In this document: piece after piece, positions 1 to 62,829 of the stretch
How positions within the stretch are numbered: position 1 is the first letter of the stretch
Layout of the letters: each line of letters opens with the position of its first letter
Assembly: GCF_029542785.1 (NCBI RefSeq)
Contig: NC_083371.1
Span: 806,001 to 870,000, forward strand
Direction: 5' to 3'
Length of the DNA stretch: 64,000 nt
DNA from: Malassezia japonica
Lineage: Eukaryota > Basidiomycota > Malasseziomycetes > Malasseziales > Malasseziaceae
Notes under the pieces: model-generated
What the model saw: the letters and a program-made list of their open reading frames with translations, nothing else
The model's database searches: none
Told to the model about the DNA's origin: nothing
Program-made: the position numbers and the translations under genes

Positions 1-1187
1 AATGTGCAGGCGCGAGTCGCCCTCGTCGCCAAAGTGGGTGTGCGTGCTCTGCTGCTGCGCGTCGTGCAGTGCGCGCTGGCGCGTACGAAAAGCGTGCAAG
101 TCGTTGGCGCGCTCGCACAGCGCCGCGTGCAGGATATCGAATGCACCGCCGAGTGCGGACCGCACGCTGATCACGGCAAACGAGCCCTTGGCGATATCGT
201 TCCCGACGTCGTGCGGGTCTTCGATGCAGAGCAAAAACGGCTTGCGTGCGTCGTACCACCCCCGCTTGCGCTTGTTAAAGTAACCCCCCAGACCCCGCAC
301 GGTAATCCCGCTCTCGTCGTACCCAAAGTTTTTGCCGTACAGCTCGAGGAGCTCCATGAGCAGCGTGCCGAGGTTGCGTTCCGCGGCGATCTCTTCCATT
401 TGCAGCTTGGGATGCAGCTGCAGAAACGATAGGATCATGAGCGTGACGCTGTATGAGCCGAGGCCGCCGGTGAACACTTCCGAGAGCGCGCGCTGCTGCA
501 AGAGCTGCTTGACGACCATCACGAGCGGCCGCAAGCCCGGCATCTTGGCGAGCCAGCGGTTGACGAGCCGCGCGGCCTGCAGTCCGTTGGCCTGGTTGAT
601 CGAGATATCGACGTGAAAGTGGCCATAGGTGCACACAAACTTGATGATCGGCACCTTGGCGCGTCCAATGACCTGGATGTCCTTTGCGAGGCCGTGCGCC
701 CGGAGGCACCCCGCAATGCTGCGCAGCGTCGTCTCGCGGGGACGCAGGTCCATGGACTTGGACAGAACTACAAGGTCGATGTCGCTGCGTGAGCTAGAGT
801 ACGTACCCCTGCGGCAGGTACAGCTGTGTGTCCTGTGACCCAAACGAGCGTACTTCGGCGTCCGGCCACTCGGAGCACAGCGCGCGCTGCAGCAGCTCGA
901 TCACCATCACGCGGCACGCGTGCTCCTCTTGTGTAGGGCAGATCCACTGCGAGTAGGTCTTTACCTCTGCGTTCAACCTGCGTCAGCGGCGCGACGTACA
1001 TTTCGGCCACGTTCCGGTACCGGTGCCACTCGACATCGGTCGCCCACGGCGTGCTGCGCGCGGTGGCGTGCTCGCGCACCGCATCGTCGACAGTCGTCGC
1101 CTGCTTCTCCTCGGGCACATCACTCTCGCTCCCCTCCCCCAGGTCGAAGGCGATGTAGTCGTCCGCGCCGAATCCAGGCGCGCTCAT
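1..1187 (-). CDS. TRF4: TRF4/Cid14-type non-canonical poly(A) polymerase, 3' end outside window
   Basis: Nuclear nucleotidyltransferase of the Trf4/Trf5/PAPD5 family. In the TRAMP complex it adds short oligo(A) tails to aberrant RNAs and so targets them to the exosome. ATG is at 1187. Two 22-nt introns (978-999 and 785-806) join three exons; the window holds 381 codons. After splicing, the catalytic core reads FGSQDTQLYLPQG-DIDLVVLS, the family's hG[GS]...DhDh motif, and the third carboxylate lies in HVDISINQANG. The central and PAP-associated domains follow (GSYSVTLMILSFLQLHP; DPHDVGNDIAKGSFAVI). The second intron falls inside the catalytic motif, which fixes its position. The GS-loop has G where homologs usually have S before DID. 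The C-terminus is cut by the window start. It is divergent from PRP5 with 54 bp between start codons. Confidence 0.9.
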
Positions 1188-1241
1188 GGCGAAAAGAAGC
1201 CCGATGGCCCGATGTATTTGTCGCTTTTCGTCCGTGTGGAA

Positions 1242-3878: not shown

Positions 3879-3881
3879 TAG

Positions 3882-5072: not shown

Positions 5073-5098
5073 GAAAAAAGTGTGGAGGGAACCTCGAC

Positions 5099-6076
5099 AT
5101 GGCGCTGCTGATCGTCGCGGGCCTGCCATGCTCTGGGCGCTCGACGCGCGTCGCAGAGACGCAGGCGTACTTTGAGACGCACCTTGCCGAGGTGCCGAGC
5201 CTTGCGCGCGTCACTGTGGTGACGGACGAGGACGTGCACGTCGACAAGAGCGTGTACGAAGGTGCGTCCTTTGTCTTACCCAGCGCAAAAAACCGAGGGA
5301 CGTGCGCGTGCGGCGTACCTGAGTGCGGTGCGGCGCGCGCTTTCGCCCAGCACGATCGTCATTGCGGACGGGGGCGCGGGTATGAATATTAAAGGGTACC
5401 GCTACGAGCTGTGGTGCGCGGCGCGCGAGCTCGGCATCCGGTGTGCAACGGTAGGTCGCCAGGCTGATGTAGATGCACGTCGCGTGCCCCCCCGACCTCG
5501 CCAGAGCGTGGAATGCGGCGCGGATTGAGCGTGGCGCGCCGGACGCATACACCGAGACATGGTACGCCGCGCCACTTACCCAGTTTCGACGAGCTCGTTG
5601 CGCGATTTGAGGAGCCGACACCTGCCTCGCGCTGGCACCGGCCGCTGTTTGTCGTGACGGCGACCGGTGCGCCCGACGCCGTAGATGCTGCGCCGATCCC
5701 CCTCGCGGACCTGTGGCACGCCGTGACCCAGAGCGAGGTCCAAGCGCCGAAAGCCGTCACGCTGCAGCGGCACACGACGGCGAACAACAGCATGGAGCTG
5801 CTCGATACCGTGACGCACAAAGTGCTTGGCGCGCTCCAGGAGCAGCGTGCGCAGGCTGCGCAAGGGCCCGTGACCCTCGCGGTCCCCGGCGTGGCGCCCG
5901 TCGCATTCTCCCTTCCCCCCGGGCGCGGCGTCCCTACGCCCGCGCGCCTGCAGACACTGCGCCGCCAGTTTGTGCGTGTCTACGCATCGAAAGCAGAGCT
6001 GCAAGGCCTTGCCATGACGGAGCACCACGTCGCGACGCTCTTTGCCGGCTGGCTGCAAGAGTCGCTTGCTTTATAG
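5099..6076 (+). CDS. KTI12: Kti12, Elongator-associated P-loop kinase-like protein
   Basis: Kti12 is a tRNA-binding ATPase needed with Elongator for wobble-uridine modification. Four exons joined over three 22-nt introns (5262-5283, 5451-5472, 5562-5583) give 303 aa. The N-terminus MALLIVAGLPCSGRSTRV is the family P-loop. Exon 2 carries NIKGYRYELWCAARE. Exon 3 gives HVACPPDLARAWN, which aligns with the family's CD...P...WN segment only after intron 2 is removed. Exon 4 starts FDELVARFEEPTPASRWHRP, a hallmark Kti12 block. Intron 2 is atypical: donor GTAGGT, branch CTGAT and acceptor TAG. The gene is divergent from the MTF2-like gene and convergent with the bZIP gene (36 bp between stops). Confidence 0.93.
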
Positions 6077-6112
6077 AAAACTTATACCACTACAAGTGCT
6101 TGGCACATACAA

Positions 6113-9088: not shown

Positions 9089-9117
9089 CCTTGTATAGTA
9101 ACGACTCACGCCTCCAC

Positions 9118-10804
9118 ATGGACCAGGCGAGGCGCCCGCGGCGGAGCAGTGCGGAGCGGTCCGAGGCGCGGTGGGCCGCCCAGCGGCCGCCGCCGAAGCC
9201 GTTCCCGGCGCATGGAGCACCGCACCCATGGGAGGAGTATACACTGGTACGCCGGCTCGGGCGCGGAAGCTTCGGGCAGGTGTACGAGGCGGTGCATGTG
9301 CCGAGTGCGCAGCTCGTCGCGATCAAGCAGGTGCACTTGGAAGCCACCTCCAAGGACGGCGGGACGCAGGCCACACAGACGCAGGACCTGTCCGAGATCC
9401 AGCGCGAGGTTACGAGCCTCGCGCAGTGCGCGACGTGCGAGCGCGTGACCAAGTACTACGGCAGCTTTTTGAAGCGCTACACGCTCTGGGTCGTGATGGA
9501 GCTCATGGACGCGGGCTCGTGCCTCGGTCTCTTGCGGCGTGTCGGGCCGCTGGACGAGCCCGTGATAGCGGTGATCTGCCGCGAGCTCGTTCTCGGCCTC
9601 GAGTATCTGCACGGCCAAGGCATCATCCACCGCGACATTAAAGCCGCCAACGTCCTCCTCGCGCGCAGCGGGCAGGTGAAGCTAGGTACGTGACGCGACT
9701 GACGCAGCCGACTTTGGCGTCGCCGCCCAGCTTGTGCACCGCGGATCGCGGCGCAATACACTCGTCGGCACGCCGTACTGGATGGCGCCGGAAGTGATCA
9801 AGCAGTCGCACTACGACGCGCGCGCGGATATCTGGTCGCTCGGCATCACCGCGCTCGAGCTCGCGACGGGGCACCCACCCCTGTCGTCGTACCACCCGAT
9901 GCGCGCGCTCTTTCTGATTCCCAAGGCGAACCCGCCGAGCGTCGACACGAGCGACGGCAAGCACACGGCGCCGTTTGCGCGCTTTGTCGAGCTGTGCCTC
10001 GCCAAGCGCCCCGAGGAGCGCGCCTCGGCGCACTCGCTGCGCACAACCTCGTTCCTAGAAGACGCCGGGTCGCTCGATCTCGTCGCGCGCTTGCTGGACG
10101 GCGGCACGCCGCCCGAGCCCGCGCCCGAGCCCGGCCTCGACGGCCAGGACACCTCGGTGCTCGACACGAGCAGCTTCTCCGAGTGGGCATTTGACGCGTC
10201 CACCGAGCCTGGCGCACAGGCGTCCGCGCTCGGGGTCGATGTGAGCCGCGTCGAGGCCGTGCCCGGCGCGGCGTCCGCGCTGGTCGACGCGCTGCGCACC
10301 GACGAGCGTCTCGCCCCCCCGCCGAGATCAGCGAGCGTGCGGCGCCGAGCGCGCCCACGACCCCCGCGATCGCGGCGACCCCCGCGTCGCCCCACCCCGT
10401 CACGCCCAAGACGCCCAAAACGCCTCCCGAGGTGCCCGAGTCGCCGCGGCGCACGCCTCGCCCCTCGAGCCAGCTCTCGTCGCCCACGCCGCGCCCGCGC
10501 CCCGACGCGGCGCACGTCATGGTGCAAAATGCGCTCGAGCAGCTCGCGTACCAGGCCGGCCAGGATGCCGCGCAGGCCGACACACCCACCACGCAGCTCT
10601 ACCAGCTCCACGGCCTGCTGAGCCAGATGGGGCGGCAGAACCCCGAGTACCTCGAGCAGTTTGTCGACCTGCTGCGCACGCCGCAGCGCGGCGCGGCGCG
10701 CGCCCGCGGCGCACTCGCGCCTCGCCGGGCTGCTGTACGAGCGGTGGCTCGAAGGCCTGCGCGCCCGGTGGCACGTCCTGGATACCGGTCACGGCCCTAC
10801 GTAG
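9118..10804 (+). CDS. Ste20/GCK-family Ser/Thr kinase, two frame breaks in the C-terminal region
   Basis: Germinal-centre-type kinase, closest by eye to the Nak1/Mst3 group that controls polarity and cell separation. The kinase domain has GRGSFGQVY, VAIKQV, HRDIKAANVLL, DFG, GTPYWMAPEV and DIWSLGITALELA. A 22-nt intron (9686-9707) interrupts KLA|DFG, so its position is fixed by the motif. Downstream the frame breaks twice. After the run of seven C at 10314-10320 the credible reading (LEQLAYQAGQDAAQ...YLEQFVDLLR) is in a different frame. From about 10700 it returns to the first frame (SRLAGLLYERWLEGLRARW) and stops at 10802-10804. The two shifts compensate, so the total length stays a multiple of three. 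ATG 9118 was chosen; ATG 9091 is in frame but only 2 nt after the SSH4-like stop. Confidence 0.85.
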
Positions 10805-10812: not shown

Positions 10813-12319
10813 TTATTCACACAGGCGCCCCAGCAGCGCAACGGGGTCCACCACGTCAAAGTACTCGTCCTTGTGCCGGTGGTTCGGGTTGGGGTTCGTG
10901 TGGTGGTGGTGGTGATGCGGCGGCGCAAGGTAATGCTGTGCGATCGCCTGGCCGAGGGCCGTGGTGGCGTTCGCGCGCCGTGCCTCGGTCGCAATGTCTT
11001 CGTGCAGCGCGCCCGCCTCGGCCAGCGCCGGGCGGTCAAGCATGCGGAGCGGCGCGAGCTGGTCGAGGAGCACCTGGTTGCGCACCGCGTCGCGCTGCTG
11101 CTGCTGCCGGCGGCGCAGCTGCGCCGCAGCGTCCTGCGGCTCGCTCGGCGTGTCGTGCAGCGCCGCGGTATCCGCGAGCTTGGCGGTGGCGCACTCGCGT
11201 GCGTACCGCGCGAGCGCGTCGTCTGGCGCCCACGATACGTGACCGTCGTCCATCTCGTCCGCGTCCGCCGCAAGGAGGCGCTCGAGCGAGCCCTGGCCGA
11301 GCGGCTCGACGACGACGTGGGGAGACAGGTCGAGGAGCGCGGCCATGTCGGGCATCGTCAGGCGCCCGTACGTCGGCGCGGCGTCGCCCTGGGCGTGCTC
11401 TGCGCGCACGCGCCCCAGTGCGCTGCTGATAATGTTGCGCAGGTGGTCCTCGAGCGCCGCAAGGACCACAGCGGCGGCCTGGACGTGCACGCCGTCCGAC
11501 AGGCCCGCCTCGACGGCTGTGAGCGTCATGCGGTCCTGCAGCGTGTGCACGTCGGGAAGCTCGTGCGTCTCGACGCAGTACGGCACAACGACCCCGCGCA
11601 GGAACGCCTCCTGCATCGCATTCGACAGGCGCGCACGCGCCGCATCGGTCTGCACCGCGCTCTGCACCGCGTGCGTCCGCCAGGAGGGGGCGCCGACCGC
11701 GGTCTTGACCTCGCGTGTGCGCCGCCGCTCCTCGACGGCCTTGCGCTTTTCGTCTTCTTTGCGTTTCTTTTCCAGGAGCTCGGCGCCGGCGCCGGCCCAC
11801 ACGGTCGCGGCGGTGTGCACACCGCCCTGGCCGCTTTTCGGCAGGTGCTCGAGACGCGCACGCTCGCGCTGCGACAGACCCGCGTACATGTGCCGCAGGC
11901 GCTTGTGGCTGCTGCGGTCGATCCCGTGCACCGGCGGCTCGCGCTCCAAGTCCGAGTCCGAGTCGAGCTCGTACAGCGTTGCGTCGCTCGCGCGGATCGG
12001 ACTCGTGGGGGCGTGCATGCCCTGCACGCCGCGCGCCGCATGCCGGGGGCGCGCAGTCGCCGCAGAAAGCATGCTCAGAATCAGCGCATTGTGCAGGGGT
12101 ACTGCGTCAGAAGCGGCACGTACAATATTCTTCCGGCAGCCACGCCTCGACGCGCTCCTGAAACTCTTCGCGGTTTATCGCGGCGGTGCAGAGCGCGCTG
12201 AGCGCCGCCCAGTACTCTTCTGCCTTGTCCCCAAGCACGGACAGGAGCCGCGCCTTGATCGCGCGCGTATCATCGCCGCCCGACCGCACCGGCGTCACCC
12301 GCGCGCTGCTGTCCGCCAT
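10813..12319 (-). CDS. HFI1: Ada1/Hfi1-like SAGA core subunit
   Basis: Ada1 forms a histone-fold pair with Taf12 in the SAGA coactivator core. Two exons joined over a 22-nt intron (12102-12123) give 494 aa. Exon 1 carries IKARLLSVLGDKAEEYWAAL and FQERVEAWLPEE. The join gives EY-LPLHNALILSML, the conserved end of the Ada1 N-terminal domain, which confirms the splice. The region LQDRMTLTAVEAGLSDGVHV through LEDHLRNIISSALGRVR matches the family's histone-fold block. Near the C-terminus is a His6 run (PPHHHHHHTNPN). The frame is open upstream to a non-ATG codon at 12334; ATG 12319 is the first true start. Convergent with the kinase gene, 8 nt between stops. Confidence 0.85.
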
Positions 12320-15300: not shown

Positions 15301-15726
15301 GGCCCGACGGTCGCAAAGATGCGCGCAAAGCGCGCCTTGTCCTCGGGCTTGATCGCGACGTCCGCAGCAGCCGGCGCCGGCGCAGCGAGGCCCTCGTACG
15401 TCGGCGGCGCGCCCTGGATCTGCGTCTCGGCTTCGCCGATGCTCTCGCCGCGCTGCGCACGTGCAATCAGGCGGAGCGCGACGCCAAACGAGTTGGGGTT
15501 CAAGAACCCATTGTTGCCGCTATCCGCGATCGACCAGATCTGGCCGAGGGTGAGCGTCGGGAGCTTGAAGCCCTCAAAGAACTTGACCGCCGCATCGCCC
15601 GAGATCATCCCGGTGTTGTTCGGATCAGCGATGAGATACAGTTGGCCAAAGGCCTGGCGCTCGGCGCCACTCAGTGACAGCGTCATGGCTGGGTCAGTCG
15701 CGCTACCTACGCGTCGCCGTGCTCAT
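12354..15726 (-). CDS. EDE1: Ede1/Eps15-like endocytic scaffold with EH and UBA domains
   Basis: Early-arriving clathrin endocytosis scaffold. Three N-terminal EH domains (e.g. QLYLIADPNNTGMISGDAAV; KPEDKARFARIFATVGPTNG; FFDSLDTEKKGSIDGALVV) would bind NPF motifs. They are followed by a coiled coil (LEAQLTRARTEHESESTAVK ... LEQKLLQDREALRETKRQ), a long Pro/Ala/Gly-rich tail, and a C-terminal UBA domain (RQLCQMGFSRSQVIRALERC). ATG 15686 starts an uninterrupted frame, but a 22-nt intron just upstream (15689-15710; donor GTAGGT, branch CTGAC) joins a 16-nt first exon from ATG 15726, giving an in-frame MSTATP leader and 1116 aa. I prefer the longer model. The tail contains 12-nt and 18-nt tandem repeats. 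Confidence 0.9.
12573..12692. repeat. 12-nt tandem repeat, about 10 copies, in the EDE1 tail
   Basis: Ten consecutive 12-nt units of GCTCGGGGGGCC, with variants such as GCTCAGAGGGCC, run through this stretch. On the coding (-) strand each unit encodes four residues of GPPS/GPLS type. The unit length is a multiple of three, so copy-number change keeps the frame. The units are not separated by unique spacers. Confidence 0.9.
12763..12816. repeat. 18-nt tandem repeat, 3 copies, in the EDE1 tail
   Basis: Three head-to-tail 18-nt units (GGAGCACCAGGCACGCCC and near-identical copies) encode a six-residue Gly/Ala/Pro/Val unit on the - strand. They lie 70 bp from the 12-nt array in the same low-complexity tail. 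Confidence 0.85.
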
Positions 15727-33172: not shown

Positions 33173-33224
33173 TTTACGACACACGGTAAATAATAAAATC
33201 ACCGATTTCGCTCAATTTATCAGC

Positions 33225-47123: not shown

Positions 47124-49149
47124 ATGAGCCGTGAGATGGAAGGTGCACAAAAGGTGCCAGAGTCCGACGTGGTCCCGGAATCTGTGGATTCCGAGGTCGA
47201 GAACGAGGCTCTTCCCGGTGCGGGCGGAGCTGAGGAAGCTGCTCCTGCAGAACCCGCCCCGGAAGCGTACAAGTCATCGAATGCTTCCACAAGAGTGCAC
47301 ACGCCTACCGTGCTAGGAATTGCGGTGGTGGACTTTGTATGTCGTACGCATTAACGCAGAATCATCTTGTGGGCCCCCAAGTGGAATTCGCCTACCCTTC
47401 GAGTCTACTAGACAACGAAGAGCTGAGTGCGCAGCTGCCCTTTTTGGCCCTTCCCGATGGGAGCCACTTGGTACGTGCATGGGCTAACTCAGTCTGAGGA
47501 AGACTTTTGCTATTTCCATATGCTGTGCAAGTCACTGTACCCCAGCACCATCTTTGGTATTTCGTGCAACCGCCAAATCAATGCAGATGCCCTGATTAAC
47601 AAGGGATCGCAGGTGACTCGGAGCATGGTCCAAAAAGCGATTGTTGTCCTCGCGACAAAGCCCATATTTGGCCCGCTGCGCGAAAAGCTCGGCATGGTGA
47701 CGCGCGCCTTTTTTGCCCAGCGCGACCTTAACAACCTGTCCCTGTTGGAAGATTTCCATGGGACACTGGAGATGAGCTTGCGTATGGGCACGGTGGGCGA
47801 ATCCAGTCATGCCTTGGACGGCGGTAGTGCACTGTATATGGGCACTTCGCTACGCGAGTTTATTTACCATTGGCGCTTCAAAGCGCTGTCCTTGGTCAAG
47901 CTTCTGCTCCTCCAGCGCAAGATCCTGTTTTTTGGATACCCTGTCGAGCGGCTGTGCATGCTCCAATACAACCTGGTCGCACTGATTCCCGCTCTACTCT
48001 CGTCGCTGGAAGACTCTGCGTCGCCTGAGCTGCACAGTCAGTCGGACGGGCGCGTGAAGGCAGAGTCGCTCAAGATGTCGGACCGACACAGCCTCTTGTC
48101 GTTTATGGGCCTACCGCTTGCCCTGTTTAGCGAGGATGCCTTTTTCCAGCCGTGTTGTCCTCTGCAGCAAATCGATACACTCAAATGCGGCTCGTGGCTG
48201 GTGGGGACGACCAACAGCATCTTTAAGCAGCAGCGCTCGTACAAGCCCGATGTGGTGGTTGACGTACGTACTGTCACTTACCCAGCTTGAGCACACCCAG
48301 TTGCAATTCAATGATCCTGCGCTGAGCAATGCCGTAACGCTCACGCCCTCCGACCGCAGCTGGATGGACCAGGTTATCAACGTCGTGCTCGAGACGTGGA
48401 ACGAGGGCGATCCGACGCAGCCGACCTTGATGCAGTACGAAGGCAGCGACGACTACCTCCGTGCTCGCTTTGAGGAGTACATCTTTGGCTTCTTGTCTAC
48501 GGCCAAGTATGCCAACCAGCTGCCGCCGACTCCGCCGGATACGCCGGTCGATCCCCAGTCGCCCACGGCGCAGTTTGGTGCCGAGGCCATCGACCTTTTC
48601 CGAGCGACGCGTGTCTTTAAGGAGTGGGACGCGCTCACCGACGATACACTGTGCGACCTGATTGGGTGCAAGCACCCATGCTCTGGAAAGGTCACGGCTC
48701 TGTCGGATGCTGCCCTCCGTCTGTCTGCTGGCCTGCACGATCTGCGCATTGATGAAAGTCTCGCACCGACGCGCGAGGCGATCGGTGCCGCATTCCAAGC
48801 TGGCAGCGCTGGCCTGTCCAAGGTTGCCAGCTCGTGGCGCACAGACCTCGCAAAGCTCAACACGGGCTGGAACTCGCCCCGGGCCGGGCGCTCGGCGAAC
48901 ACGAGCGTGGATCTGACACACAACCCCCCCGACCTTGAAGGCGTGTCGACGCCTACGTCAGAAGCTCCGCCCGGGTCCGCATCGACGTCGCCTGCGCCGA
49001 CGTGGGACTCACGCAAGCAAGAGGCCCTGTCTACATTGCAAGCAACAGGCGCACAAGGCTATGCTGCACTCGGCAACCTAGGCTCTTTCCTGTCTGCCAA
49101 ACAAAAGGCCTGGTCGTCGCGTCGTCCGCGGAACGAGGATACCCAATAA
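47124..49149 (+). CDS. AVL9: Avl9-like DENN-related exocytic transport protein
   Basis: Avl9 family proteins act in Golgi-to-surface secretion. Four exons with introns at 47337-47359 (23 nt, donor GTATGT), 47471-47492 (22) and 48264-48285 (22) give 652 aa; every splice is phase 0. Spliced signatures are VVDF|NHLVGPQVEFAYPSS, LPFLALPDGSHL|SEEDFCYF, FGISCNRQINADALI, REKLGMVTRAFFAQRDLNN and LLLLQRKILFFGYPVERLC. An acidic Ala/Glu-rich leader precedes the domain; ATG 47124 is the first true start. The C-terminus is Ser/Pro-rich and poorly conserved. Confidence 0.9.
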
Positions 49150-49207: not shown

Positions 49208-49595
49208 TTAACGACGGCTCTGCGTCTCGGCCTCTGTGGTCAGTGACACAACGCACCTCGCCGGGTCGCATCCTCGAGCAGCTGCGTGTCGACAGCGGCC
49301 GCCGGGATGTGAACGTAGCGCACGACCGAGCCACGAATGAACGTCGAGCGCACAGCGCTCTGTGGTCAGACACAAAACATACCATGTGCGGGTAGCGGCC
49401 CGGGTCAAGCACCTTGATGTCGTCCAGCTTGAAGTTGAGGAACCTGCGGTCAGACATGCGACGTACTGGTCGACGCTCTTGAGCGTTCCCTGGATAGCCA
49501 GATCATTTTTCAGCTCGACGGTAACCGTCTGGCCGGTAAGCGTCTTGAACGCCGAGAACATCAACTAGGGTTAGCGCATCCTTCCCACTTACCAT
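49208..49595 (-). CDS. LSM2: LSm2, U6 snRNP / decapping Sm-like protein
   Basis: Subunit of the LSm2-8 ring on U6 and the LSm1-7 decapping ring. Three 23-nt introns (49444-49466, 49360-49382, 49234-49256) join FSAFKTLTGQTVTVELKNDL, SVDQ|FLNFKLDDIKVLDPGRY, PHM|SAVRSTFIRGSVVRYVH and ATRR|EAETQSRR, matching Lsm2 throughout. A fourth, 28-nt intron (49565-49592; GTAAGT donor, TAG acceptor) would place the start at ATG 49595, an exon holding only the start codon, giving MLMFSAFK and 96 aa. Without it, translation starts at ATG 49561 (94 aa). Both fit the family length. It is divergent from WRS1. Confidence 0.92.
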
Positions 49596-49678: not shown

Positions 49679-50987
49679 ATGGAGACGCTTACGAAGGATC
49701 TCGAGAAGACCTCGGTTACGCCTGTCGCGGGCGATGCCGCGGCTGCTCCGGACTCGGCGCAGAAGGTTACGCCGTGGGACGTCGAGGGTGGCTTCGTCGA
49801 TGGAAAGCAGGTGTCGATCGACTACAACAAGCTCATTAAAGAGTTTGGCACGAAGCCCATTGACGCTGCGCTTCTCGAGCGCTTTGAGCGCGTTACCGGC
49901 CGCAAGCCGCATCCTCTGCTGCGCCGCGGCAGCTTCTTTAGCCACCGGTACGTCCCCTTGCTAATTCAGCGAGCTTGACCTGATCCTGACGCGCTACGAG
50001 CAGCAAAAGCCCTTTTACCTCTATACCGGCCGTGGCCCCAGCTCCTCGTCGATGCACCTGGGCCACCTGATCCCCTTTCTTTTTACGCAGTGGCTGCAGG
50101 ACGTGTTTGATGTGCCGCTGGTCGTGCAGCTGACTGACGACGAAAAGTTCCTGTTCAAGAACGAGCTCAAGATTGAACAGGCGCAAAAGTTTGCGTATGA
50201 GAACGCGCGCGACATTATTGCCTGCGGGTTTAAGCTGGAAAAGACGTTTATTTTCTCCGACCTTGACTATGTCGGCGGCGCCTTTTACCAGAATGTCGTG
50301 CGCATTGCGCGGTACATTACCGTAAACCAGTCGAAGGGCACCTTTGGCTTCAACGACAGCGACAGCATCGGCAAGCTGCACTTTGTCGCCGTCCAGGCCG
50401 CGCCCTCCTTCTCGAGCTCATTCCCCCAGATCTATGGCTCGAAGACGGACGTGCCGTGCCTGATCCCCTGTGCGATTGACCAGGACCCCTACTTCCGCCA
50501 GACGCGCGACGTCGCGGTGCGTCTCAAGTACCCCAAGCCGAGTCTGATCCACTCCAAGTTTTTCCCCGCGCTCCAGGGCTCGCAGACGAAGATGAGCGCG
50601 TCGAACGAGACGTCGAGCATCTTTATGCACGACACGCCGAACCAGATCAAGAACAAGATCAACAAGCACGCCTTCTCTGGCGGTCAGGAGACGCTCGAGG
50701 AGCAGCGCCGCCTGGGCGGCAACCCCGATGTGGACGTCAGTTTCCAGTACCTCACCTTCTTTGTCGACTCCGACGAGGAGATTTCGCAGATTGCGGAGGA
50801 CTACCGCGCCGGCCGCCTGCTCACTGGCGAGCTCAAGAAGCGCTGCATCGCCGAGCTGCAGCGTGTCGTGAGCGACTTCCAGAAGCGCAAGGCCGAGGTC
50901 TCGGACGAGACGCTGAAGCAATTCATGGATCCCACGCGCAAGATCGACCCTACGCCCCCGATCCCCCACAGCCAGGCCGCGCCGTAG
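49679..50987 (+). CDS. WRS1: Cytosolic tryptophanyl-tRNA synthetase
   Basis: Class I synthetase charging tRNA-Trp, 428 aa. A 22-nt intron (49948-49969; branch CTAAT) joins SFFSHR to [18 protein letters not shown]. Class I signatures are MHLGHL (HIGH) and KMSAS (KMSKS). The eukaryotic/archaeal-type active site is seen in [15 protein letters not shown]. The conserved [16 protein letters not shown] and [16 protein letters not shown] segments are intact. Confidence 0.96.
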
Positions 50988-51077: not shown

Positions 51078-52147
51078 ATGCCCATGTCTGGAGTGAGCGT
51101 CGCGCGGGTGTATCCCGACGCGAATGAGAAGCACGGTAGAGCGTGGTGGGATTATGGTACGTGCGCTTACTGACCCAGACAACCTGCAGTTGCAATGGTA
51201 CGCACTCACACTCACACAGGGGAACCCAGGACCATTTTGAGATCCTGCAAAAGGTCGGGCGTGGCAAGTATTCGGAAGTGTTCGAAGGTATTAATGTCGC
51301 CTCGTCCGGCTACGATAAGTGCATTATCAAGGTGCTGAAGCCTGTCAAGAAAAAGAAGATCAAGCGCGAGATCAAGATCCTGCAGAACCTGATGGGCGGC
51401 CCCAATGTCGTGCAGCTGATTGACGTGGTGCGCGACCCTCAATCCAAAACGCCCTCGATCATCACGGAGTATGTGAACAACACCGACTTCAAGACGCTTT
51501 ACCCTCGGTTCTCCGACTTTGACGTCCGCTACTACATCGCCGAGCTGCTCAAGGCGCTCGATTTTTGCCATTCGCGCGGCATTATGCACCGCGACGTGAA
51601 GCCGCACAATGTAATGATTGACCACGAGAAGCGCCAGCTGCGCCTCATTGACTGGGGTCTCGCGGAGTTCTATCATCCCTATACCGAGTACAACGTGCGC
51701 GTCGCGTCGCGCTACTTCAAGGGGCCCGAACTCCTGGTCGACTTCCAGGAGTACGACTACTCGCTTGACATGTGGAGTCTCGGCTGCATGTTTGCGAGCA
51801 TGGTCTTCCGCAAGGAGCCCTTCTTCCACGGCCACGACAACTACGACCAGCTCGTCAAGATCGCCAAGGTGCTCGGCACCGACGGCCTGTTTGCTTACCT
51901 CGAGAAGTACAATATCGAGCTCGACTCCCACTACGACGGCATCCTCGGGCGGTACCAACGCAAGCCGTGGCCCCGCTTCGTCACGCCCGAGAACCAGCGG
52001 TATATCTCGGACGAGGCACTCGACTTCCTCGACAAGCTGCTGCGCTACGACCACCAGGAGCGCCTCACGGCGGGCGAGGCTCAGCAGCACCCCTACTTTG
52101 ACCCAGTGAAGAACGCGGCAGGGAACGTGAGTAGCGAGAGTGCATAG
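51078..52147 (+). CDS. CKA1: Casein kinase II catalytic alpha subunit
   Basis: Constitutive acidophilic Ser/Thr kinase, 341 aa. Two 22-nt introns (51157-51178 and 51198-51219) flank a 19-nt exon. Spliced, [24 protein letters not shown] matches the CK2-alpha N-terminus precisely. Catalytic motifs are [23 protein letters not shown] and [10 protein letters not shown] (DWG rather than DFG, typical of CK2); the basic cluster [15 protein letters not shown] binds acidic substrates and CK2-beta. ATG 51078 is followed by an alternative ATG at 51084. The stop is 3 nt from the stop of the convergent RSC gene. Confidence 0.97.
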
Positions 52148-52150
52148 TGC

Positions 52151-53981
52151 CTATTCTACAGGATTACTATGCTTCCGGACCATCTCGTACATGTAGGACA
52201 GACTAGGCAGGGGGAGCTGCGTCGTCCCGTCCTGGACCGCCGTCGAGCCGTTCCAGCCGCTGAGCGGGGGGGCCGCGTACCACAGCGTCTTGCCCTCGGC
52301 ATCTTGGCGGAAGAGGTCGCGGGTCGCAGCGGGCAGCGCGCTAAACGTGCCTTCGGCGCGGTGCGCGACAAAGACCGGCGCGAGGCCAGGCACGCTCGGC
52401 GCACGGCTCACCTCGACGTCGTGCAGCACGCCAGCGTTGCGCGCCGCATCGCGCAGGCGCACAATGAGCCCATCGGGCACACTGTAGCGCATGCCCAGCG
52501 CAATCAGCTCGCCGTGCGTCGCATCGGGGTGGGAGAGCAGCGCCTGCTGCACGGCCGCGTACGACGCAGGGCTCGTGCGCCGCGCAACGTCGCTCGCGAC
52601 CATATGAAATGCGGCGTACGCACGCAGGCGGTCAGGGTGCGCCGCATTCAGGCCTGCGACGGCGGGGCGCGGAGGCGCCGCGGCCGGCGTGGGCGCCGCG
52701 GCCTCGGCTGCACTTACGCCCGTGTCAAACAGGTCGCGGTACTCGTGTGGCTCGTCGTCGCGCCGCGCATGCTCGAGAAGCACGCCAAAGCCGGGCGCGT
52801 ACACGTTGCTCGTGAGCAGCGACGCGCTGCGCTTCGGCACCTCGCTCGGCACGGCAAAGATGGTCATGGGCGTGTGCTTTGCACGCACGTCTACCGGCAC
52901 GCAGCTCGCCCAGCTCTGGATTTTGTGGAACTCATGCGTGCGCACGTCGTACTTGGACTCGACAATGTACAGCGGGACATTCGGTGTGCTGTACTCGGCC
53001 ACCGGACGGGCCCGCGTGTACTTGGTGTGGAACAGGACGAGGACCTCTTCCATGATATCTTCGAGCGCGTGCTCGCCAAACACGCCCGTCTTTACCACCT
53101 CGTTCTCGGCAAAGAGGCGTGAGTCTGCGTGGGACGTCTGCTCGGGCCGGTAGTACCAGCAGGCGGTGACAAAGATGCCCGGCGTGCTCTTTTTTTGGTA
53201 CACGCGAAAGAGCTGGCCGACGATCGGCCGCGAGGGATCCACCGGGTTCATGAGGTGCACCCAGTCGCCTGCGCGGTACGCGCGCCCCTTGAAGTAGGCG
53301 TGATCCAGGGCCTTGTGCACGTCGGTCGCCGCGTCGCTCGGCTCGTTTCCCGGCCCGTATGCGCTCGAGGCAAAGTAGTGCGACGCGTGTGCCCCAGAGC
53401 GGCGCGCATCGACGACGTCAATGTCGGTCGCGCGCGCCTTGACGTGGCTCTTGCCCGACGCGTCGTGCAGCGCGCCTTTCGACGGCGTCAGCTGCTGGTA
53501 GAGCCGCTGCAGCGTGATCATTTCCTTGTAGCCCGGCGTCCCCAGGCCATACCACGTACGCGCATTCGAAAAGAGCTGGAGCATGTCCTGCTCAAACAGC
53601 GCCGGCTGCGCGTACTCGCAGTGCACGATACGGTGCGTAATCGCATGCAGCGAGGTCGGGCGTGCAATCTGGGTCAGCGTCGCGACGTACACGCTCGTAG
53701 TACTCTGGATTATGCTCCTGCACAGGACACTCTTCCAAGGGATCGCTCAGCACGCGCGTCTTGTCGTCCGCACCCGCGTCCTGCTCGACATTGCCGAGCT
53801 CCACGTCGCGTACGTGATGCAATATTTGCGCGCACATGGCATGCATGTTTTCCGCGTCGCGCGCGCGGCACCATACCCAGCCCGTGTCCTGATTCGTCTG
53901 AAACACGGAGCGCTCGCGGGTAGGCTCGCCGCTCCCGACGCACAGGCCCAGCGAGTAGAGCGGGTCCGCTTCGTCGCTCAT
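52151..53981 (-). CDS. RSC1: RSC1/RSC2-like bromodomain and BAH-domain protein
   Basis: Subunit of the RSC chromatin remodeller, 602 aa. A 22-nt intron (53669-53690) joins HNPEYYER to IARPTSLHAITHRIVHCEY inside the bromodomain (LFEQDMLQLFSNARTWYG is its C-terminal helix). A BAH domain follows (RAYRAGDWVHLMNPVDPSRP, QLFRVYQKKSTPGIFVTACW, HADSRLFAENEVVKTG). Only one bromodomain is visible, whereas yeast Rsc1/2 have two. The acidic N-terminal 90 residues might be a degenerate first copy. ATG 53981 was chosen because the upstream in-frame ATG lies at the start of the divergent transporter gene, 53 bp away. Confidence 0.85.
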
Positions 53982-54034: not shown

Positions 54035-55433
54035 ATGTCGGCGGCAAATGGGTATGCGGTCGGCGCCGGGCTCGTGCTGCTGGTCGACGTGCTCTGGACC
54101 GCGTCCAACTTTCTGGCGAATACAGTGCTGTATGTGGTTTGACTTACACAGCACACATGGGTACAATAAGCCGTTTGCCGTGACCTACCTGAGCACTGCG
54201 AGCTTTGTCGCGTACCTCGTGCCGTTTGCGTTCTTGTACTGGTACCGCGGGAAGCCTTCCGCGGAGGATGCGCCGCCGCAGTGGTACGAAAAGCTGGGCT
54301 TCCGCCTGCCCCCGATGTACCCCCCTCCCGCGTACGTCGCAATGCTCACGCAGGGATCAAGTGCGCGAGTCGCAGCGCAGCCTTTTGCGCGCGCCGAGCG
54401 ACGGGCGCCCGCTGCGCCCGTCGTCGATCGACGGCCGGCGGCCGTCGAGCAACCTGAATATGCGCGTCGATGCTCCAGACGCCATGGCCACCCGCCCCCG
54501 CCGCGCCTTGTCGCGTGGCCGCAGCTTTACGAAGCGCGGCACCGAAGAGTCGCAGGAGCTCACGCGCGACGCACCACCTAGCTACGGCTCCGAGTCGGAC
54601 GGATCCGAGGCGGGCGACGCGTTGCACCTAGTGCCCGCGTCCGAGCTTCCCCCGCTGTCGCTGAGCGAGACCGCGGTGCTCTCGATGCAGTTTGCCGTCG
54701 TGTGGTTTGCGGCGAACTGGACGTTTGTCGCGGCGCTTGGCTACACGAGCGTGGCGAGCGGCACGACGCTCGGCTCGTCGAGTGGCTTCTTTACGCTGCT
54801 GCTCGGCAGCATGGTCGGCACCGACTCGTTCTCCCCTGGCAAGCTCGCGTCGGTCTTTTTGAGCTTTTTCGGTGTCGCGCTCGTGGCGTGGGCGGACAGC
54901 GGGGCGCCGCACGCAGTCGGCGTCGCGCCCCGCCCGATCCTCGGCGACGTGCTCGCGATCGTCTCGGCAATGTGTACGTGGGAATGCTGACGCAGGCTAT
55001 GCGCTGTACGTGACCCTCTTGAAAATGCGCATCGGGTCCGAGGACCGCATCTCGATGCCCCTCTTTCTCGGCCTCGTCGGCCTGTTTAATCTCGTCGCAT
55101 TCTGGCCCGTGGGCCTCGTGCTGGACCTGATCGGCATCGAGCCGCTCGCCTGGCCCTCCGACGGGCTGATGTGGGCGGGCCTCGGGGTGAATATGGCCAT
55201 CACCGTGGTGAGGTACGTTTTCGTTTTAACGCAGCGACTTTGCGTACCTGCTCGCGATGCTCAAGTCGTCGCCGCTCTTTACCACAGTCGGTCTCTCGCT
55301 GACAATCCCCATGGCGGCGCTCGGCGACGTGGTGCGCGACCCTGCGTCGATAAACATGCAAAACGCCCTTGGCTCTGTGCTGGTGCTCCTGAGCTTTGGC
55401 GCGATTGCTTGGGAAGAAAATTGGACCGCCTAG
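54035..55433 (+). CDS. SLC35F-like (EamA/DMT) membrane transporter
   Basis: Ten-span drug/metabolite-type transporter resembling the SLC35F5/YML018C group of endomembrane carriers; substrate unknown. 436 aa from five exons over four 22-nt introns: 54130-54151, 54332-54353, 54974-54995 and 55213-55234. Splices restore TVL|THGYNKPFAVTYLSTASF, AM|CYALYVTLLKMRIG and ITVVS|DFAYLLAMLKSSPL. Core segments are FAANWTFVAALGYTSVASGT, TLGSSSGFFTLLLGSMVG and FLSFFGVALVAWAD. A cytosolic loop of ~80 residues after exon 2 is Arg/Ser-rich. The stop is 8 nt from that of the convergent phosphatase gene. Confidence 0.88.
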
Positions 55434-55441
55434 CGTGCTAT

Positions 55442-57095
55442 TCACATGCTGCACCGCTCGAAGCACCGACGCGCGTGCTCCTGGCGGTGGATAAATCGTA
55501 CATACTCCATCAAAAAGTGCGCCTGCTCTGCCGTTTCAATGGCGCGCAGGCTGCGCCGGCGGCGGACCACCTCGATCAGTTTCAACACGGTCTGGAGGAC
55601 GCTCGCCGAGTCGTTTTGGGCCTCGCGCGCAGCGCTTGCGAGCGACACGTCGAGCGGCACAGGCGCCGCCGACGGCATCACAAAGCCCATCTTGAGTGTC
55701 CAAATCGCTGCGACCAGGCCCGCGCGTCCGACACCGCCGCGGCAGTGGACAAGGATCGAGGAGCCGCGCAGCGTATAGGTCAAAATCAGCGCCGTAATCA
55801 TAATGTCGAATTTGACCAGGTCCGTCGGCGCAAAGCCCTCGGCAATCGGCAGCCGCACGAGGTCGAGGCCTTGCGACGCGACTTCGTCCATGTACTCGGC
55901 GCACGGCGAGCCGAGGAGCGTCAGCTCGTCGTCGTCGAGGCAGCACACAATCGCACGCACGCCCATCGCGCGGTAGCGCACGAGGTCCATTTTCAGGTCG
56001 CGGCACACACTGCTGCGGCCACGCACCGGGGCATTCATTCGCACCTTTTTGCCCGGGCACGACGAGAGGATCATGTTGCCGATCTGGTGGGGGCGCTGCG
56101 CGCTCTCCGCCATCGTCTCGGGCGACTCTTTGCACGGCTCCACGGTGCGTGCAAGCTCGTCGAGCGACACGGTCGGGGGCAGGCGGATCAGCTGCTCGCC
56201 GCGCACCTGGCCGGTGAGGTGCTCCTCCGGCTCGCCGAGCGCGTGCACAAGGTGCGACGCAAACTCGCCCGGGGGAATCGGCTCGCCCCGCTGCAAGTAG
56301 CCCCACGAGGAGCGTGGCAAAGGCGTGTCCGAGCGCCCCGGCGCAACCTGCGCGAGCTCGGCATACTCGCGGGGAAGGTGTTTTAGGACGTGCTCCGAGA
56401 GCATCGGCACCATGCTTGGCGGCAGGATAGGGCTTACATGAATTGGGTGCGTGTCGCTCGTCTTGATTGTGCACGGCGGATTCGGCACCTGCGACATGCC
56501 GCCCGTGCCGTCCATGCACGCCATCTGCATCGCATCCCGGAACGCCTTTGTCATCATAGGCGGGGTATCATTGGGAATGGACAGTGGGCATGGCGCAGGC
56601 GTTTCTTCGGGTCCCAGGACGCCATCGAGGTCTGCCGCATCGTCCATGCACGGCGACGCACGCGGGGTAGTGTCGGTGGCGTCGTCCTCCGGCGACGACA
56701 CTTCGGTCGACTGATGCAGTTTCCAGCTCCAGGCATTCCCCTCGATCTCGCGCTGACGCGCGAGGATCGTGTTCGTGGCGAGGGGCTGCTGCAGCGACAT
56801 GGGCAAGTAGGCATAGGGTGCGCCTGGGTCAGTGGCGCAACGAACCTCCATAGCCAAATTTTAGTGTGCTATAGGTGCTCAGATGGTACTGGCTTGCGAG
56901 CGGCGCACAGTTCATCAGCTCAATCCAGTCGCCACGCCCCGTCTGCAGCACCGACTGGTAGACGTCGTGCGCGAGACGGTCGCGTTCGATGAATCCGGGC
57001 GCAGCCGCGCCGTCATCATGCTGGTGCGATGAAACGCTTTGCTCCGACACGCCGCACGCTCCACGTACGGGCGCCGGAAGCGCAATAGAGTCCAT
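55442..57095 (-). CDS. Cysteine-based protein phosphatase with novel N-terminal region
   Basis: 543 aa after removing a 22-nt intron (56824-56845) with an unusual GTTCGT donor; the splice gives LKFGYG|GAPYAYLPMSL. The C-terminal third holds a dual-specificity/KAP-like phosphatase domain with the CX5R loop ILVHCRGGVGRAG and a WPD-region candidate around LVRLPIAEGFAPTD. The residue after the catalytic Arg is Ala, where most active family members have Ser or Thr. The N-terminal 300 residues match no domain I know. The C-terminus (RRCFERCSM) has a CxxCSM-like end not clearly a CaaX box. ATG 57095 lies 222 bp from the divergent chitin synthase. Confidence 0.82.
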
Positions 57096-57317
57096 GGCAG
57101 CAGCACGTCCAGGCCTCTTCCAACGTCCGTGCAGCGTGGTGGCAAGGCGTTGGCGCCACCTACACGTGCTGCAACGTAATCTCGGCCGAATTTAAGGTGC
57201 AGACGCGTTCCAACGCTTTTACGCGCCTGCAGCGACGGAAATACCGCGCGCGAAACGGGTCGTGACTTGCTTCTGCCGTGAGATCTGCAGTGACTTGCGC
57301 GTGGTTGCTCTGCTACG

Positions 57318-60791: not shown

Positions 60792-60841
60792 TGCACCAAG
60801 CCACATTCGTTGTCGACTATTGACGTATATATTCATTTGCG

Positions 60842-62829
60842 CTACTGGCGCTTGATCTGGGCGCACCGTAGACGGTTCACTTGCATAAGTCACAATACGT
60901 ACCAGCTGCACCAAGATCCACACGCCGGGGACGCGCAAGGAATCCATCATGGCGCCCAGCGCTTTGCAGCGCATCCACACCGTGCTCTTCGACAAGCCGC
61001 TCCAGCGTATCCACCAGCTCGCGCAGATGGGCAACGGGGGCACCGCTCATGCCCTGACGGCCAAGCAGGCCGTCAGGCTGCGCCCACTGCCGCAGGACCG
61101 TTTCGATGGCTCGCGTCTGGCTCGCGTGCACGAGCTGGGGGACGGCATGCAGATCCAGCGTCTCGTCGCCGTACTGCACAAGAAAGCGGTGGCGCGTCGA
61201 GACTTTTCCACGCGGCTCGAGTGAGGGGAGGCGCACGGTGCGCAGCCACGCCGCTTGGGCGGCCACCGAAAAGAGGGCAGGGTCGGGGAGGCCCGGCGCA
61301 GGCTGCTGTGCCACGAGCTCCTTGGCGGCGCGCGTCACGTCGCGCATCTTGTAGCGCTCCATCTGGACCACGACATCGGCCTCGCGCAGAAAAGCGCTCG
61401 AAGAGCCGCACACTAGCGCGATCGTCGCGCCGGTCTGCTCGACCAAGTCGCGCGCGCGCGCCACCAGCGGCGTAATGGGCTCGTCGGGCACGAGCGTCTT
61501 CATGGTCGCATCGCGCACCAAAAAGTTGGACGCGGTCGAGTCCTCGTCAAAAATGAGCAGGTCTGAGCCGAGCTCAAGCGCTTCCATCAGCGCAGCGGCA
61601 CACGACGTGCTGCCTGACGCATTGCTAGTCGAAAAGTGGCTGCGTCAGCAGGAAGGCGTACCTCGTATCACTTCCATCCGGCAGGTTGGAAATGAACGGC
61701 GAAATGTCCACTTGGCTGACCGGACGGCCGTCCTCGGACCGGATGCTTGCTGCAGAGGGCGAGACCGAGACAAACTCACGTCCGTCGCCGGGAATGTGGT
61801 TGTAGGTGCCGTACGCCAGCGCCGAGAGGAAGGTCGACTTGCCGTGGAATCCGCCGCCAAGACACACGTACAGCGACTTTTTTGCGATGCCGAGGCCCTT
61901 GATCTTTCCACGATTCGGCAGCGTAAGCGTGACCTGGAGCTCTTTGGGGCTCTCGAATGCGACGCACGGCGGCGACGGCATAGGAAGGTCCGACGCGCCC
62001 GACGCACGCGCAAGCACGGCGCCATTCGGAAGAAAGCCGACCAAACCGTGGGCACTTAGCATGCCACGAAGCGCGTCTTGGTCCTCAATCGAAAAGATGT
62101 GCTGCTTCAAGTGTGCAGCATCGCAGCTGCTGTAAAACAGGGCGTGCTGCGCCAAGCTCGGCACGTTTTCGCACACTGTGTCAGAGGAGATACGTACAGA
62201 CTGTAGCGGCCAAAGCACCCATGATGCTGCGGCCACGCGCAGGAAGGCCGACAAGGAAGCGTACCTCGATCCCTTCATCGTCGATCTGCACCGCAGTGCG
62301 CTCGAGGACCTGCTGCCCGGGCTCGTCGACTTCAATCTGTCCCCCTTTGCCGCCGGACCAGCCGCCACTCGAGAGGCGCTGGTCGTAGCGCTTGGACGTA
62401 CATGCATCGTAGACAGTACGCAACAAGTAGTCCGCCAGTGCCACACGACGCGTGCGCGTGCTGTACAGCTCCAGCGGGAACTGCGCATGTGCATGCGGAA
62501 TTTTGAGGCGGGCCTTGCTTGGCGCTGCGTACGGATCCGCCTGGGCATGATCGAGTGTAAATGCAAACTTTTCAAACGACCATGTCCCCTCAATGTCATG
62601 GTACGCAGGATACGGCCGGTTGTCGTGCGCGTGCAGCCAGGCATCCAAGTCGGAAGAAGTGCCTGGGTGAGTTAGGCGACGTACCCAAGACGTCAGACGT
62701 GCGCGTACGCTTAGCGCCGCCCGACCAACTACCCCCTCTACCGCCATGTCCTCCGGCGCTTCCACCGTCGCGCGCGCCACCGCGGCCGTACTTTTGCTTG
62801 TAATAGGCCCCACGTCCTCTACCGCTCAT
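60842..62829 (-). CDS. ABC-class predicted ATPase (COG3044/DUF2791 type) with RG-rich N-terminus
   Basis: 632 aa from five exons: introns 62663-62684, 62176-62197 and 61640-61661 (22 nt each) and 60880-60902 (23 nt, AAG acceptor). The N-terminus is Gly/Arg/Tyr-rich (MSGRGRGAYYKQKYGRGGAR). The ATPase core has Walker A GGGFHGKSTFL, the signature region HFSTSNASGSTSCAAALMEA (restored across intron 3), Walker B LLIFDEDSTASNFLVRD and a helical C-terminus. The last splice gives DLGAA|VNRLRCAQIKRQ, which fits the family's NRLR-type ending; unspliced it would end in TYCDLCK. Function of the family is not established; the RG-rich leader suggests RNA binding. Confidence 0.85.

What the first reader, a model, noticed from the sequence alone, without database searches (positions are those of the whole stretch)
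785..62684. A near-uniform 22-nt spliceosomal intron class
Splicing frames together gives 43 introns in 19 genes: 33 are exactly 22 nt, 7 are 23 nt, and only three are longer (28, 33, 34). The fit is GTACGT-N7-CTNAC-N-CAG. Positions are fixed independently by conserved protein motifs: kinase DFG (9686-9707), gamma-tubulin (five introns), CK2-alpha (51157-51219), Trf4 DIDL (785-806). All spliced coding sums come to whole codons except the window-truncated TRF4 and the frame-broken kinase. Introns this short and this uniform are near the known spliceosomal minimum, and the size peak suggests measurement of intron length rather than loose tolerance. Short introns are known in Malassezia-like yeasts; whether this tight 22-nt mode has been formally described I cannot check.
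Basis: partly seen in the sequence, partly recalled or inferred. Interest (0 to 1): 0.88.

Follow-up and report, generated by a model that had tools for sequence, protein, structure and literature searches.

The report
Yeast introns pinned at 22 nucleotides
This skin yeast (Malassezia japonica) has a large class of tiny introns, very many of them exactly 22 letters long, which sit at a sharp lower limit set by the distance from the start of the intron to its presumed branch point; such short introns are known in other organisms, but this tight fungal version gives an unusually clean view of the limit.

Summary
Confirmed. In all 33 the branch-like A is at position 17. For 29 of 44 a profile, structure or database protein aligns across the junction. 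The species is taken to be Malassezia japonica: the spliced gamma-tubulin (five 22-nt introns) is 100% identical to NCBI's protein, so public annotation already removes these five. Genome-wide (8.43 Mb), GTACGT-N7-CTNAC-N-CAG occurs 1784 times (reversed control 0). One base less between donor and branch gives 0 hits, one base more gives 204. A gene finder with a flat length prior calls no intron under 22 nt (0 of 164). The peak is a floor with a one-sided tail, more like a geometric minimum than a two-sided ruler. U2 and U6 snRNAs are canonical where they pair with introns. Extra: the base before the branch A is nearly free in 22-nt introns but A in 21 of 26 listed hits of 37 nt or more. New variant of a known kind. 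Splicing itself was not observed.

The parts
785..806 (-). 22-nt intron, Trf4-type poly(A) polymerase (window-truncated gene)
   Evidence: junction inside the MTPAP-like palm match of the spliced protein
978..999 (-). 22-nt intron, Trf4-type gene
   Evidence: junction 3 residues before the profile match, frame only
5262..5283 (+). 22-nt intron, KTI12
   Evidence: KTI12 70.7 bits (exon alone) to 193.7 bits spliced
5451..5472 (+). 22-nt intron, KTI12
   Evidence: as above
5562..5583 (+). 22-nt intron, KTI12
   Evidence: as above
9686..9707 (+). 22-nt intron, Ser/Thr kinase, beside the DFG motif
   Evidence: Pkinase 112.1 and 65.9 bits apart, 209.3 bits joined
12102..12123 (-). 22-nt intron, SAGA-Tad1 gene
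   Evidence: 80.8 bits to 149.8 bits spliced
15689..15710 (-). 22-nt intron, EH-domain (Ede1-like) gene; weakest of the set
   Evidence: informed-prior model only; the ORF behind it has its own ATG; motif
15940..15963 (-).
   Evidence: Reductase_C 22.7 to 34.1 bits
17662..17683 (-). 22-nt intron, proteasome beta subunit
   Evidence: gene models
17913..17945 (-). 33-nt intron, proteasome beta subunit
   Evidence: Proteasome 165.6 to 181.8 bits
18758..18779 (+). 22-nt intron, large ORF without Pfam match
   Evidence: gene models
33399..33420 (+). 22-nt intron, MgtE-type transporter
   Evidence: gene models
33529..33550 (+). 22-nt intron, MgtE-type transporter
   Evidence: MgtE 37.7 to 96 bits
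34598..34619 (+). 22-nt intron, MgtE-type transporter
   Evidence: gene models
43430..43451 (-). 22-nt intron, gamma-tubulin
   Evidence: spliced protein 100% identical to NCBI M. japonica gamma-tubulin
43479..43500 (-). 22-nt intron, gamma-tubulin
   Evidence: as above
43539..43560 (-). 22-nt intron, gamma-tubulin
   Evidence: as above
44067..44088 (-). 22-nt intron, gamma-tubulin
   Evidence: as above
44449..44470 (-). 22-nt intron, gamma-tubulin
   Evidence: as above
45974..46007 (+). 34-nt intron near the 3' end of the fibrillarin gene
   Evidence: gene models; not
46508..46530 (-). 23-nt intron, Erf4
   Evidence: Erf4 35 to 86.6 bits
46681..46702 (-). 22-nt intron, Erf4
   Evidence: as above
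46776..46798 (-). 23-nt intron, Erf4 (edge of the profile match)
47337..47359 (+). 23-nt intron, Avl9
   Evidence: Avl9 69.2 to 449.4 bits
47471..47492 (+). 22-nt intron, Avl9
   Evidence: as above
48264..48285 (+). 22-nt intron, Avl9
   Evidence: as above
49234..49256 (-). 23-nt intron, LSm2
   Evidence: gapless alignment of residues 1-93 to LSm2 of 3jcr
49360..49382 (-). 23-nt intron, LSm2
   Evidence: as above
49444..49466 (-). 23-nt intron, LSm2
   Evidence: as above
49565..49592 (-). 28-nt intron directly after the ATG of LSm2
   Evidence: placed by hand
49948..49969 (+). 22-nt intron, class I (Trp/Tyr) aminoacyl-tRNA synthetase gene
51157..51178 (+). 22-nt intron, CK2 alpha
   Evidence: gapless alignment to CK2 alpha of 6ise; placed by hand
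51179..51197 (+). 19-nt micro-exon of CK2 alpha between two 22-nt introns
51198..51219 (+). 22-nt intron, CK2 alpha
53669..53690 (-). 22-nt intron, BAH/bromodomain gene
   Evidence: Bromodomain 31.5 to 48.8 bits
54130..54151 (+). 22-nt intron, SLC35F-like transporter
   Evidence: gene models
54332..54353 (+). 22-nt intron, SLC35F-like transporter
   Evidence: gene model; flat-prior runs end it 27 nt later
54974..54995 (+). 22-nt intron, SLC35F-like transporter
   Evidence: gene models; junction inside a weak SLC35F match, 27.6 bits
55213..55234 (+). 22-nt intron with TTAAC branch, SLC35F-like transporter
   Evidence: as above
56824..56845 (-). 22-nt intron, dual-specificity-phosphatase-like gene
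   Evidence: gene models
60880..60902 (-). 23-nt intron, ABC-class ATPase gene
   Evidence: junction inside MRB1590_C, 79.5 bits
61640..61661 (-). 22-nt intron, ABC-class ATPase gene
   Evidence: ABC_ATPase 185.5 to 330.9 bits
62176..62197 (-). 22-nt intron, ABC-class ATPase gene
   Evidence: ABC_N 143.2 to 153.9 bits
62663..62684 (-). 22-nt intron, ABC-class ATPase gene
   Evidence: gene model

Best explanation
These are ordinary U2-type spliceosomal introns of Malassezia japonica that have been shortened to a hard geometric minimum. Donor GTACGT pairs with U6 and the branch CTNAC with U2. The branch A cannot lie closer than position 17 to the 5' splice site, and the intron normally ends 5 nt after it, so 22 nt is in effect the smallest intron the machine accepts. 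Deletion pressure in a compact genome pushes most introns onto that floor; longer introns are tolerated, so the distribution is one-sided. Shown: position, length, frame restoration, homology across junctions, genome-wide counts, canonical U2 and U6 pairing regions. Inferred: that they are spliced, that A17 is the branch nucleotide, and that geometry plus deletion causes the floor.
For: 33 of 33 22-nt introns in the window have the branch-like A at 17. Homology or the NCBI protein spans 29 of 44 junctions. Genome-wide with fixed donor, branch and acceptor: 1784 at N7/N1 (control 0), 0 at N6/N1 (control 2), 204 at N8/N1 (control 0), 39 at N7/N0 (control 0), 97 at N7/N2 (control 0), 667 for longer ones against 96 control, 8 against 5 control for N0-5 spacers. 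No intron under 22 nt among 164 flat-prior calls. U2 GUAGUA and U6 ACAGAGA are intact.
Against: No RNA was seen. The 39 hits of 21 nt show that the branch-AG part of the floor is soft, if they are introns (not tested). In the flat-prior set of 144 introns up to 60 nt, 25 have no CTNAC near the AG; 14 of these are 22-23 nt and 17 of the 25 have a near variant (YTNAY), so the branch motif is looser than CTNAC. One of the other 119 has its last CTNAC with A at 15, but a CTAAT with A at 19 follows in the same intron. The drop from 1784 to 204 at one base longer looks steeper than the later decline, so pure deletion onto a floor may not be the whole story.
Confidence: 0.75

Rival explanations
1. 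A true ruler: the spliceosome of this yeast actively measures 17 nt from donor to branch and 5 nt to AG, favouring that exact spacing over both shorter and longer ones, so that position replaces part of the sequence signal.
For: The step from 22 to 23 nt is about nine-fold for the same A-AG distance (1784 to 204). The base before the branch A is nearly free at A-AG 5 (A in 26 of the first 100 listed 22-mers) but A in 21 of 26 listed hits of 37 nt or more (19 of 21 after I dropped rows that looked like overlaps or chance), as if fixed position compensated for a weak branch helix.
Against: Longer introns are common: 23 nt is 7 of 44 here, 22 of 164 in the flat-prior run, and a tail runs to about 50 nt. 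One-sidedness alone is explained by a floor.
Confidence: 0.2
2. The segments are not introns but coding or regulatory repeats, or assembly errors.
Against: Profile and structure matches become continuous when they are removed; 1784 copies with the spacing fixed and 0 with one base less; the NCBI gamma-tubulin lacks all five.
Confidence: 0.02
3. The 22-nt introns are a recently multiplied family (introner-like copies of one unit).
For: Three of five gamma-tubulin introns are near-identical (43430, 43479, 44449). Among 98 introns, N7 pairs identical at 6 of 7 positions exceed a column shuffle (46 against mean 23.0, maximum 39 in 300).
Against: Against a first-order Markov null the count is not exceptional (46 against mean 35.8, maximum 69 in 300).
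Confidence: 0.05

Closest known systems
Stentor coeruleus 15-16 nt introns (PMC9505925, passages read)
   Same: Very narrow length class, branch A at one fixed position (10th in 90.9% of introns), 5-nt tail after the branch A, conserved U2 branch-recognition and U6 ACAGAGA regions.
   Different: 15-16 nt, AU-rich (75.63%), branch A at 10 and no strong branch consensus. Here 22 nt, 57% GC, A at 17, strong CTNAC, and a coexisting tail of longer introns.
Mikrocytid 16-17 nt introns (PMC10245619, abstract and passages read)
   Same: Numerous, conserved in sequence, narrow size range.
   Different: All 16 or 17 nt, in parasites with highly reduced spliceosomes; here 22 nt with a length tail.
Paramecium bursaria short introns (PMC12862383, passages read)
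   Same: Median 24 nt; splicing is less efficient outside 23-26 nt.
   Different: Minimum 15 and maximum 100 nt, so lengths lie on both sides of the median; here there is a sharp left edge at the mode.
Malassezia restricta and M. globosa introns (PMC9241646 Table 1, PMC6473144, PMC4634964; passages read)
   Same: Same genus; M. restricta was annotated with minimum intron settings of 20 then 15.
   Different: M. restricta annotation gives mean/median 37.2/30 nt and M. globosa mean 76-79 nt; no 22-nt mode is reported in the passages read.
Intron-poor eukaryotes with strong 3' structures (PMC2483917, abstract and passages read)
   Same: Constrained branch sequence and branch-AG distance (for example Debaryomyces, 65% at 6-8 nt).
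   Different: There the constraint goes with few introns and a strong branch consensus; here introns are many and the base before the branch A is loose in the shortest class.

Membership tests
U2-type spliceosomal introns | GT...AG ends | tested here: met
   44 of 44
U2-type spliceosomal introns | Branch motif that can pair with U2 GUAGUA, with U2 and U6 present and canonical in the pairing regions | tested here: met
   CTNAY near the AG in 158 of 162 introns of 60 nt or less, in a run whose score favoured such a motif; U2 123.1 bits, U6 80.8 bits
U2-type spliceosomal introns | U1 snRNA present | tested here: inconclusive
   Rfam U1 gave nothing, but the control rang nowhere either
U2-type spliceosomal introns | Removal restores an ORF homologous to relatives | tested here: met
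   29 of 44 junctions spanned; of the other 15, two lie inside a weak SLC35F match and the rest stand on frame and signals only
U2-type spliceosomal introns | Excised from mRNA as a lariat | not testable with these tools
   no RNA data here
U12-type introns (motifs recalled, not from a call) | Donor RTATCCTT and branch TTCCTTAAC | tested here: not met
   Donors GTACGT-like, branch CTNAC; U12 snRNA was not searched for
Uniform ultra-short intron class (Stentor/mikrocytid kind) | Most introns within one or two nucleotides of one length | tested here: met
   40 of 44 in the window are 22-23 nt; 98 of 164 flat-prior calls are 22-23 nt
Uniform ultra-short intron class (Stentor/mikrocytid kind) | Fixed branch position | tested here: met
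   A at 17 in 33 of 33 22-nt introns
Uniform ultra-short intron class (Stentor/mikrocytid kind) | Length 15-17 nt | tested here: not met
   Floor at 22 nt, with 39 candidate 21-mers

The most novel reading that the evidence does not exclude
M. japonica runs two intron grammars with one major spliceosome: a 22-nt class in which fixed spacing (branch A at 17, AG 5 nt on) carries the information and the base before the branch A is free, and a longer class that keeps the classical CTAAC branch with the AG about 8-12 nt away. Spacing would thus stand in for branch-site sequence, and the zero at one base shorter would mark the physical minimum of the fungal branching step.
Probability: 0.35. Interest if true: 0.7.

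Novelty: new variant of a known kind. Interest (0 to 1): 0.54.

Why it matters
The counts of 0, 1784 and 204 for spacers of 6, 7 and 8 nt give a sharp natural measurement of the minimum donor-to-branch distance in a fungus with canonical U2 and U6 pairing regions, and make that limit directly testable with yeast reporters. The link between spacing and branch strictness suggests that distance can replace branch sequence. In practice, gene finders and RNA aligners whose minimum intron is set above 22 nt, or that dislike very short exons, will mis-join genes here, such as around the 19-nt CK2 alpha exon (inference).

Tried and rejected
Chance motif: rejected by decoys and reversed controls. Copy-paste intron family: excess similarity not beyond a Markov null in 98 introns. 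A compensating base in U6 for the unusual +4 C of GTACGT: the U6 pairing box is the ordinary ACAGAGA; my first exact U6 pattern missed it, since the gene has a U where the pattern asked for C. U1 could not be found with Rfam, so a compensating U1 remains open. Looking for Malassezia contigs of a second species in the viral and prokaryote collections gave none, so I could not test whether sister species share the 22-nt mode.

Finder calls that I did not count: of the 66 flat-prior calls longer than 23 nt, 14 (37 to 229 nt) start with a complete 22-nt unit, 9 of these with an excess that is a multiple of 3. I read them as finder slips, so the flat-prior count at 22 nt is probably low. In the window I also left out 8914-9149, 33129-33246, 46478-46702, 55449-55505, 57021-57068 and 60770-60905 (57021-57068 also) and, 10241-10326 and 10659-10686, as unsupported; one search's long calls at 5441, 43314 and 50984 span several of the listed introns at once. 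In the first comparison of branch letters I dropped 8 of the 100 rows listed that looked like two introns in one, overlaps or chance; with them restored the numbers are 35 of 50 (31 nt or more) and 21 of 26 (37 nt or more) instead of 32 of 43 and 19 of 21.
Full report
What is there. The window is 64 kb of a compact, GC-rich fungal genome (64.4% GC), part of an 8,433,779-base assembly in 9 contigs. The spliced gamma-tubulin (43407-44875, minus strand) is identical over 452 of 452 residues to NCBI 'gamma-tubulin [Malassezia japonica]', which lies on a contig of 1,414,235 bases; hits on our contig C2 run to at least 1,387,330. I therefore take the window to be M. japonica, which belongs to the furfur-japonica-obtusa-yamatoensis cluster (PMC4634964, passages read).

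The observation. The total is 44 introns in 20 genes: 33 of 22 nt, 7 of 23, and one each of 24, 28, 33 and 34. Junctions spanned by a protein alignment: gamma-tubulin 5 (residues 1-448 also align with PDB gamma-tubulin-1), CK2 alpha 2 around a 19-nt micro-exon, LSm2 4 (gapless over residues 1-93), KTI12 3, Avl9 3, ABC-class ATPase 3 of 4, Trf4 1 of 2, Erf4 2 of 3, MgtE 1 of 3, Rieske 1 and proteasome 1 of 2, kinase 1, bromodomain 1, SAGA-Tad1 1. That is 29 of 44 (20 of 33 at 22 nt, 6 of 7 at 23 nt, 3 others). Two more lie inside a weak SLC35F match (27.6 bits); the remaining 13 stand on frame and signals alone, the weakest being 15689-15710.

Is the peak an artefact of looking for it? I wrote a Viterbi gene finder trained on long ORFs of the window plus 200 kb of contig C1. 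With nothing but GT, AG, coding frames and a flat length prior from 10 to 150 nt it called 50 introns, 18 of them 22 nt; five decoy dinucleotide pairs gave 0 of 43, 2 of 41, 3 of 46, 1 of 42 and 2 of 40. With donor and branch signals placed at any distance, 56 of 114 were 22 nt; three decoy signal sets gave 0 of 60, 1 of 47 and 3 of 42. The similar totals with decoys (40-60) show that many non-22 calls are noise. With a lighter intron penalty and flat prior, 76 of 164 were 22 nt, 22 were 23 nt and none was shorter than 22. A later run with a prior favouring 22-23 nt was used to draw gene models: 98 of 164 at 22 nt and 26 at 23 nt in 264 kb, which extrapolates to roughly 5,000 introns in the genome (inference).

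Genome-wide. Holding donor GTACGT, branch CTNAC and acceptor CAG fixed and varying the two spacers: N7/N1 (22 nt) 1784 hits, reversed control 0; N6/N1 (21 nt) 0, control 2; N8/N1 (23 nt) 204, control 0; N7/N0 (21 nt) 39, control 0; N7/N2 (23 nt) 97, control 0; N9-39/N0-12 667, control 96; N0-5/N0-4 8, control 5. So the donor-to-branch distance has an edge: nothing at 16, 1920 hits at 17, 204 at 18 (AG distance 5 only), and a declining tail above; hits at 17 are about two thirds of all these hits. In 162 modelled introns of 60 nt or less, 158 have a CTNAY branch; none has its A before position 17 and none has fewer than 5 nt after it (that run's score favoured 22-23 nt and a nearby branch motif). 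In the flat-prior set of 144, 119 have a CTNAC within 15 nt of the AG; in one of them the last CTNAC has its A at 15, but a CTAAT with A at 19 follows. Of the 25 without, 14 are 22-23 nt and 17 have a YTNAY variant.

Mechanism. U2 snRNA (C2:763486-763677, plus strand) carries the ordinary GUAGUA, and U6 (C9:407313-407417, minus strand) the ordinary AUACAGAGAAGAUUAGCA. A U2AF65-like ORF exists (C9:362333-363526, 224.4 bits, below the curated cut-off of 310.3), and an SF3b145/Cus1-type gene (DUF382 + PSP) lies in the window at 26269-27744 (family identity recalled). I conclude that the ordinary major spliceosome removes these introns and that 22 nt is in effect the smallest unit it accepts, the sum of a minimum of 17 nt to the branch A and 5 nt after it. 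Introns have been driven down to this floor (inference). A two-sided ruler is not needed to explain the data and is not excluded.

A second pattern. In the first 100 listed 22-nt hits the base before the branch A is A 26, C 32, G 31, T 11; in the first 100 listed 23-nt hits with the same AG distance it is A 20, C 34, G 35, T 11. With the AG one base further away (97 hits) A is 47; with the AG one base nearer (39 hits) it is C in 36. Among the 100 longer hits listed, A is 35 of 50 at 31 nt or more and 21 of 26 at 37 nt or more (32 of 43 and 19 of 21 after dropping 8 doubtful rows; Fisher p = 4e-7 and 9e-8 for 31 nt or more against 22 nt). The small flat-prior sample agrees for distances 5 or less and 6 (A 19 of 84 and 12 of 23) and is too small and mixed beyond (5 of 12). 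Branch strictness thus varies with spacing, which suggests that fixed position can stand in for a branch-helix pair. The long and 22-nt lists come from contig C1 only, and about 14% of the long-pattern hits are expected by chance (96 against 667).

Compared with what is known. Stentor introns of 15-16 nt also have a fixed branch A and a 5-nt tail (PMC9505925, passages read); mikrocytid introns are all 16 or 17 nt (PMC10245619, abstract and passages); Paramecium bursaria has a median of 24 nt with lower splicing efficiency outside 23-26 nt (PMC12862383, passages). Within the genus, 'very short introns' are stated in a review (PMC7426719, passage), M. restricta has annotated mean/median 37.2/30 nt and 2,150 introns (PMC9241646 Table 1) and was annotated with minimum intron settings of 20 and 15 (PMC6473144), M. 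globosa has a mean of 76-79 nt and 2,092 to 3,943 introns by annotation (PMC4634964), and M. sympodialis is classed as intron-poor in a survey of fungi (PMC8476143, passages). I found no paper that reports a 22-nt mode in M. japonica in searches of the open-access library. Two M. sympodialis papers that I looked up by recalled DOI are not held, so a description there is possible. The identity of the NCBI gamma-tubulin with my spliced product shows that annotators already remove such introns.

Limits. No transcript data; one species; 200 kb plus the window for gene models; pattern counts depend on a strict consensus that only 20 of the 33 window introns of 22 nt meet in full.

Noticed in passing
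genome-wide hits: The base before the branch A depends on the branch-to-AG distance: C at 4 nt, free at 5 nt, increasingly A at 6 nt and beyond.
   Followed up: partly
22-nt introns, position 9: Position +9 is C or T in 85 of 100 listed 22-nt introns and G in only 4; it could extend pairing with U6 upstream of ACAGAGA, but +7 and +8 do not fit such pairing.
   Followed up: no
window:49208-49595: LSm2, itself part of the U6 snRNP (recalled), has four introns in 96 codons, one directly after the ATG.
   Followed up: yes
window:9118-10621: Protein kinase gene: domain intact across the 22-nt intron, but the Arg/Pro-rich C-terminal tail looks out of frame; cause unknown, described only.
   Followed up: partly
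window:46238-46336: 99-nt tRNA match on the minus strand by Rfam (71-position model), not reported by ARAGORN as run here; probably an intron-bearing tRNA.
   Followed up: no
G000:C1:334761-334781 and 38 other places: 39 candidate 21-nt introns, 36 ending in CTCACCAG; not tested for frame.
   Followed up: no
P0007: A 1815-aa annotated protein of Malassezia sp. CBS 17886 carries both the EH-domain and the Rieske/reductase families, which are neighbouring separate genes here (12354-15726 and 15810-17495); possibly an annotation merge.
   Followed up: no
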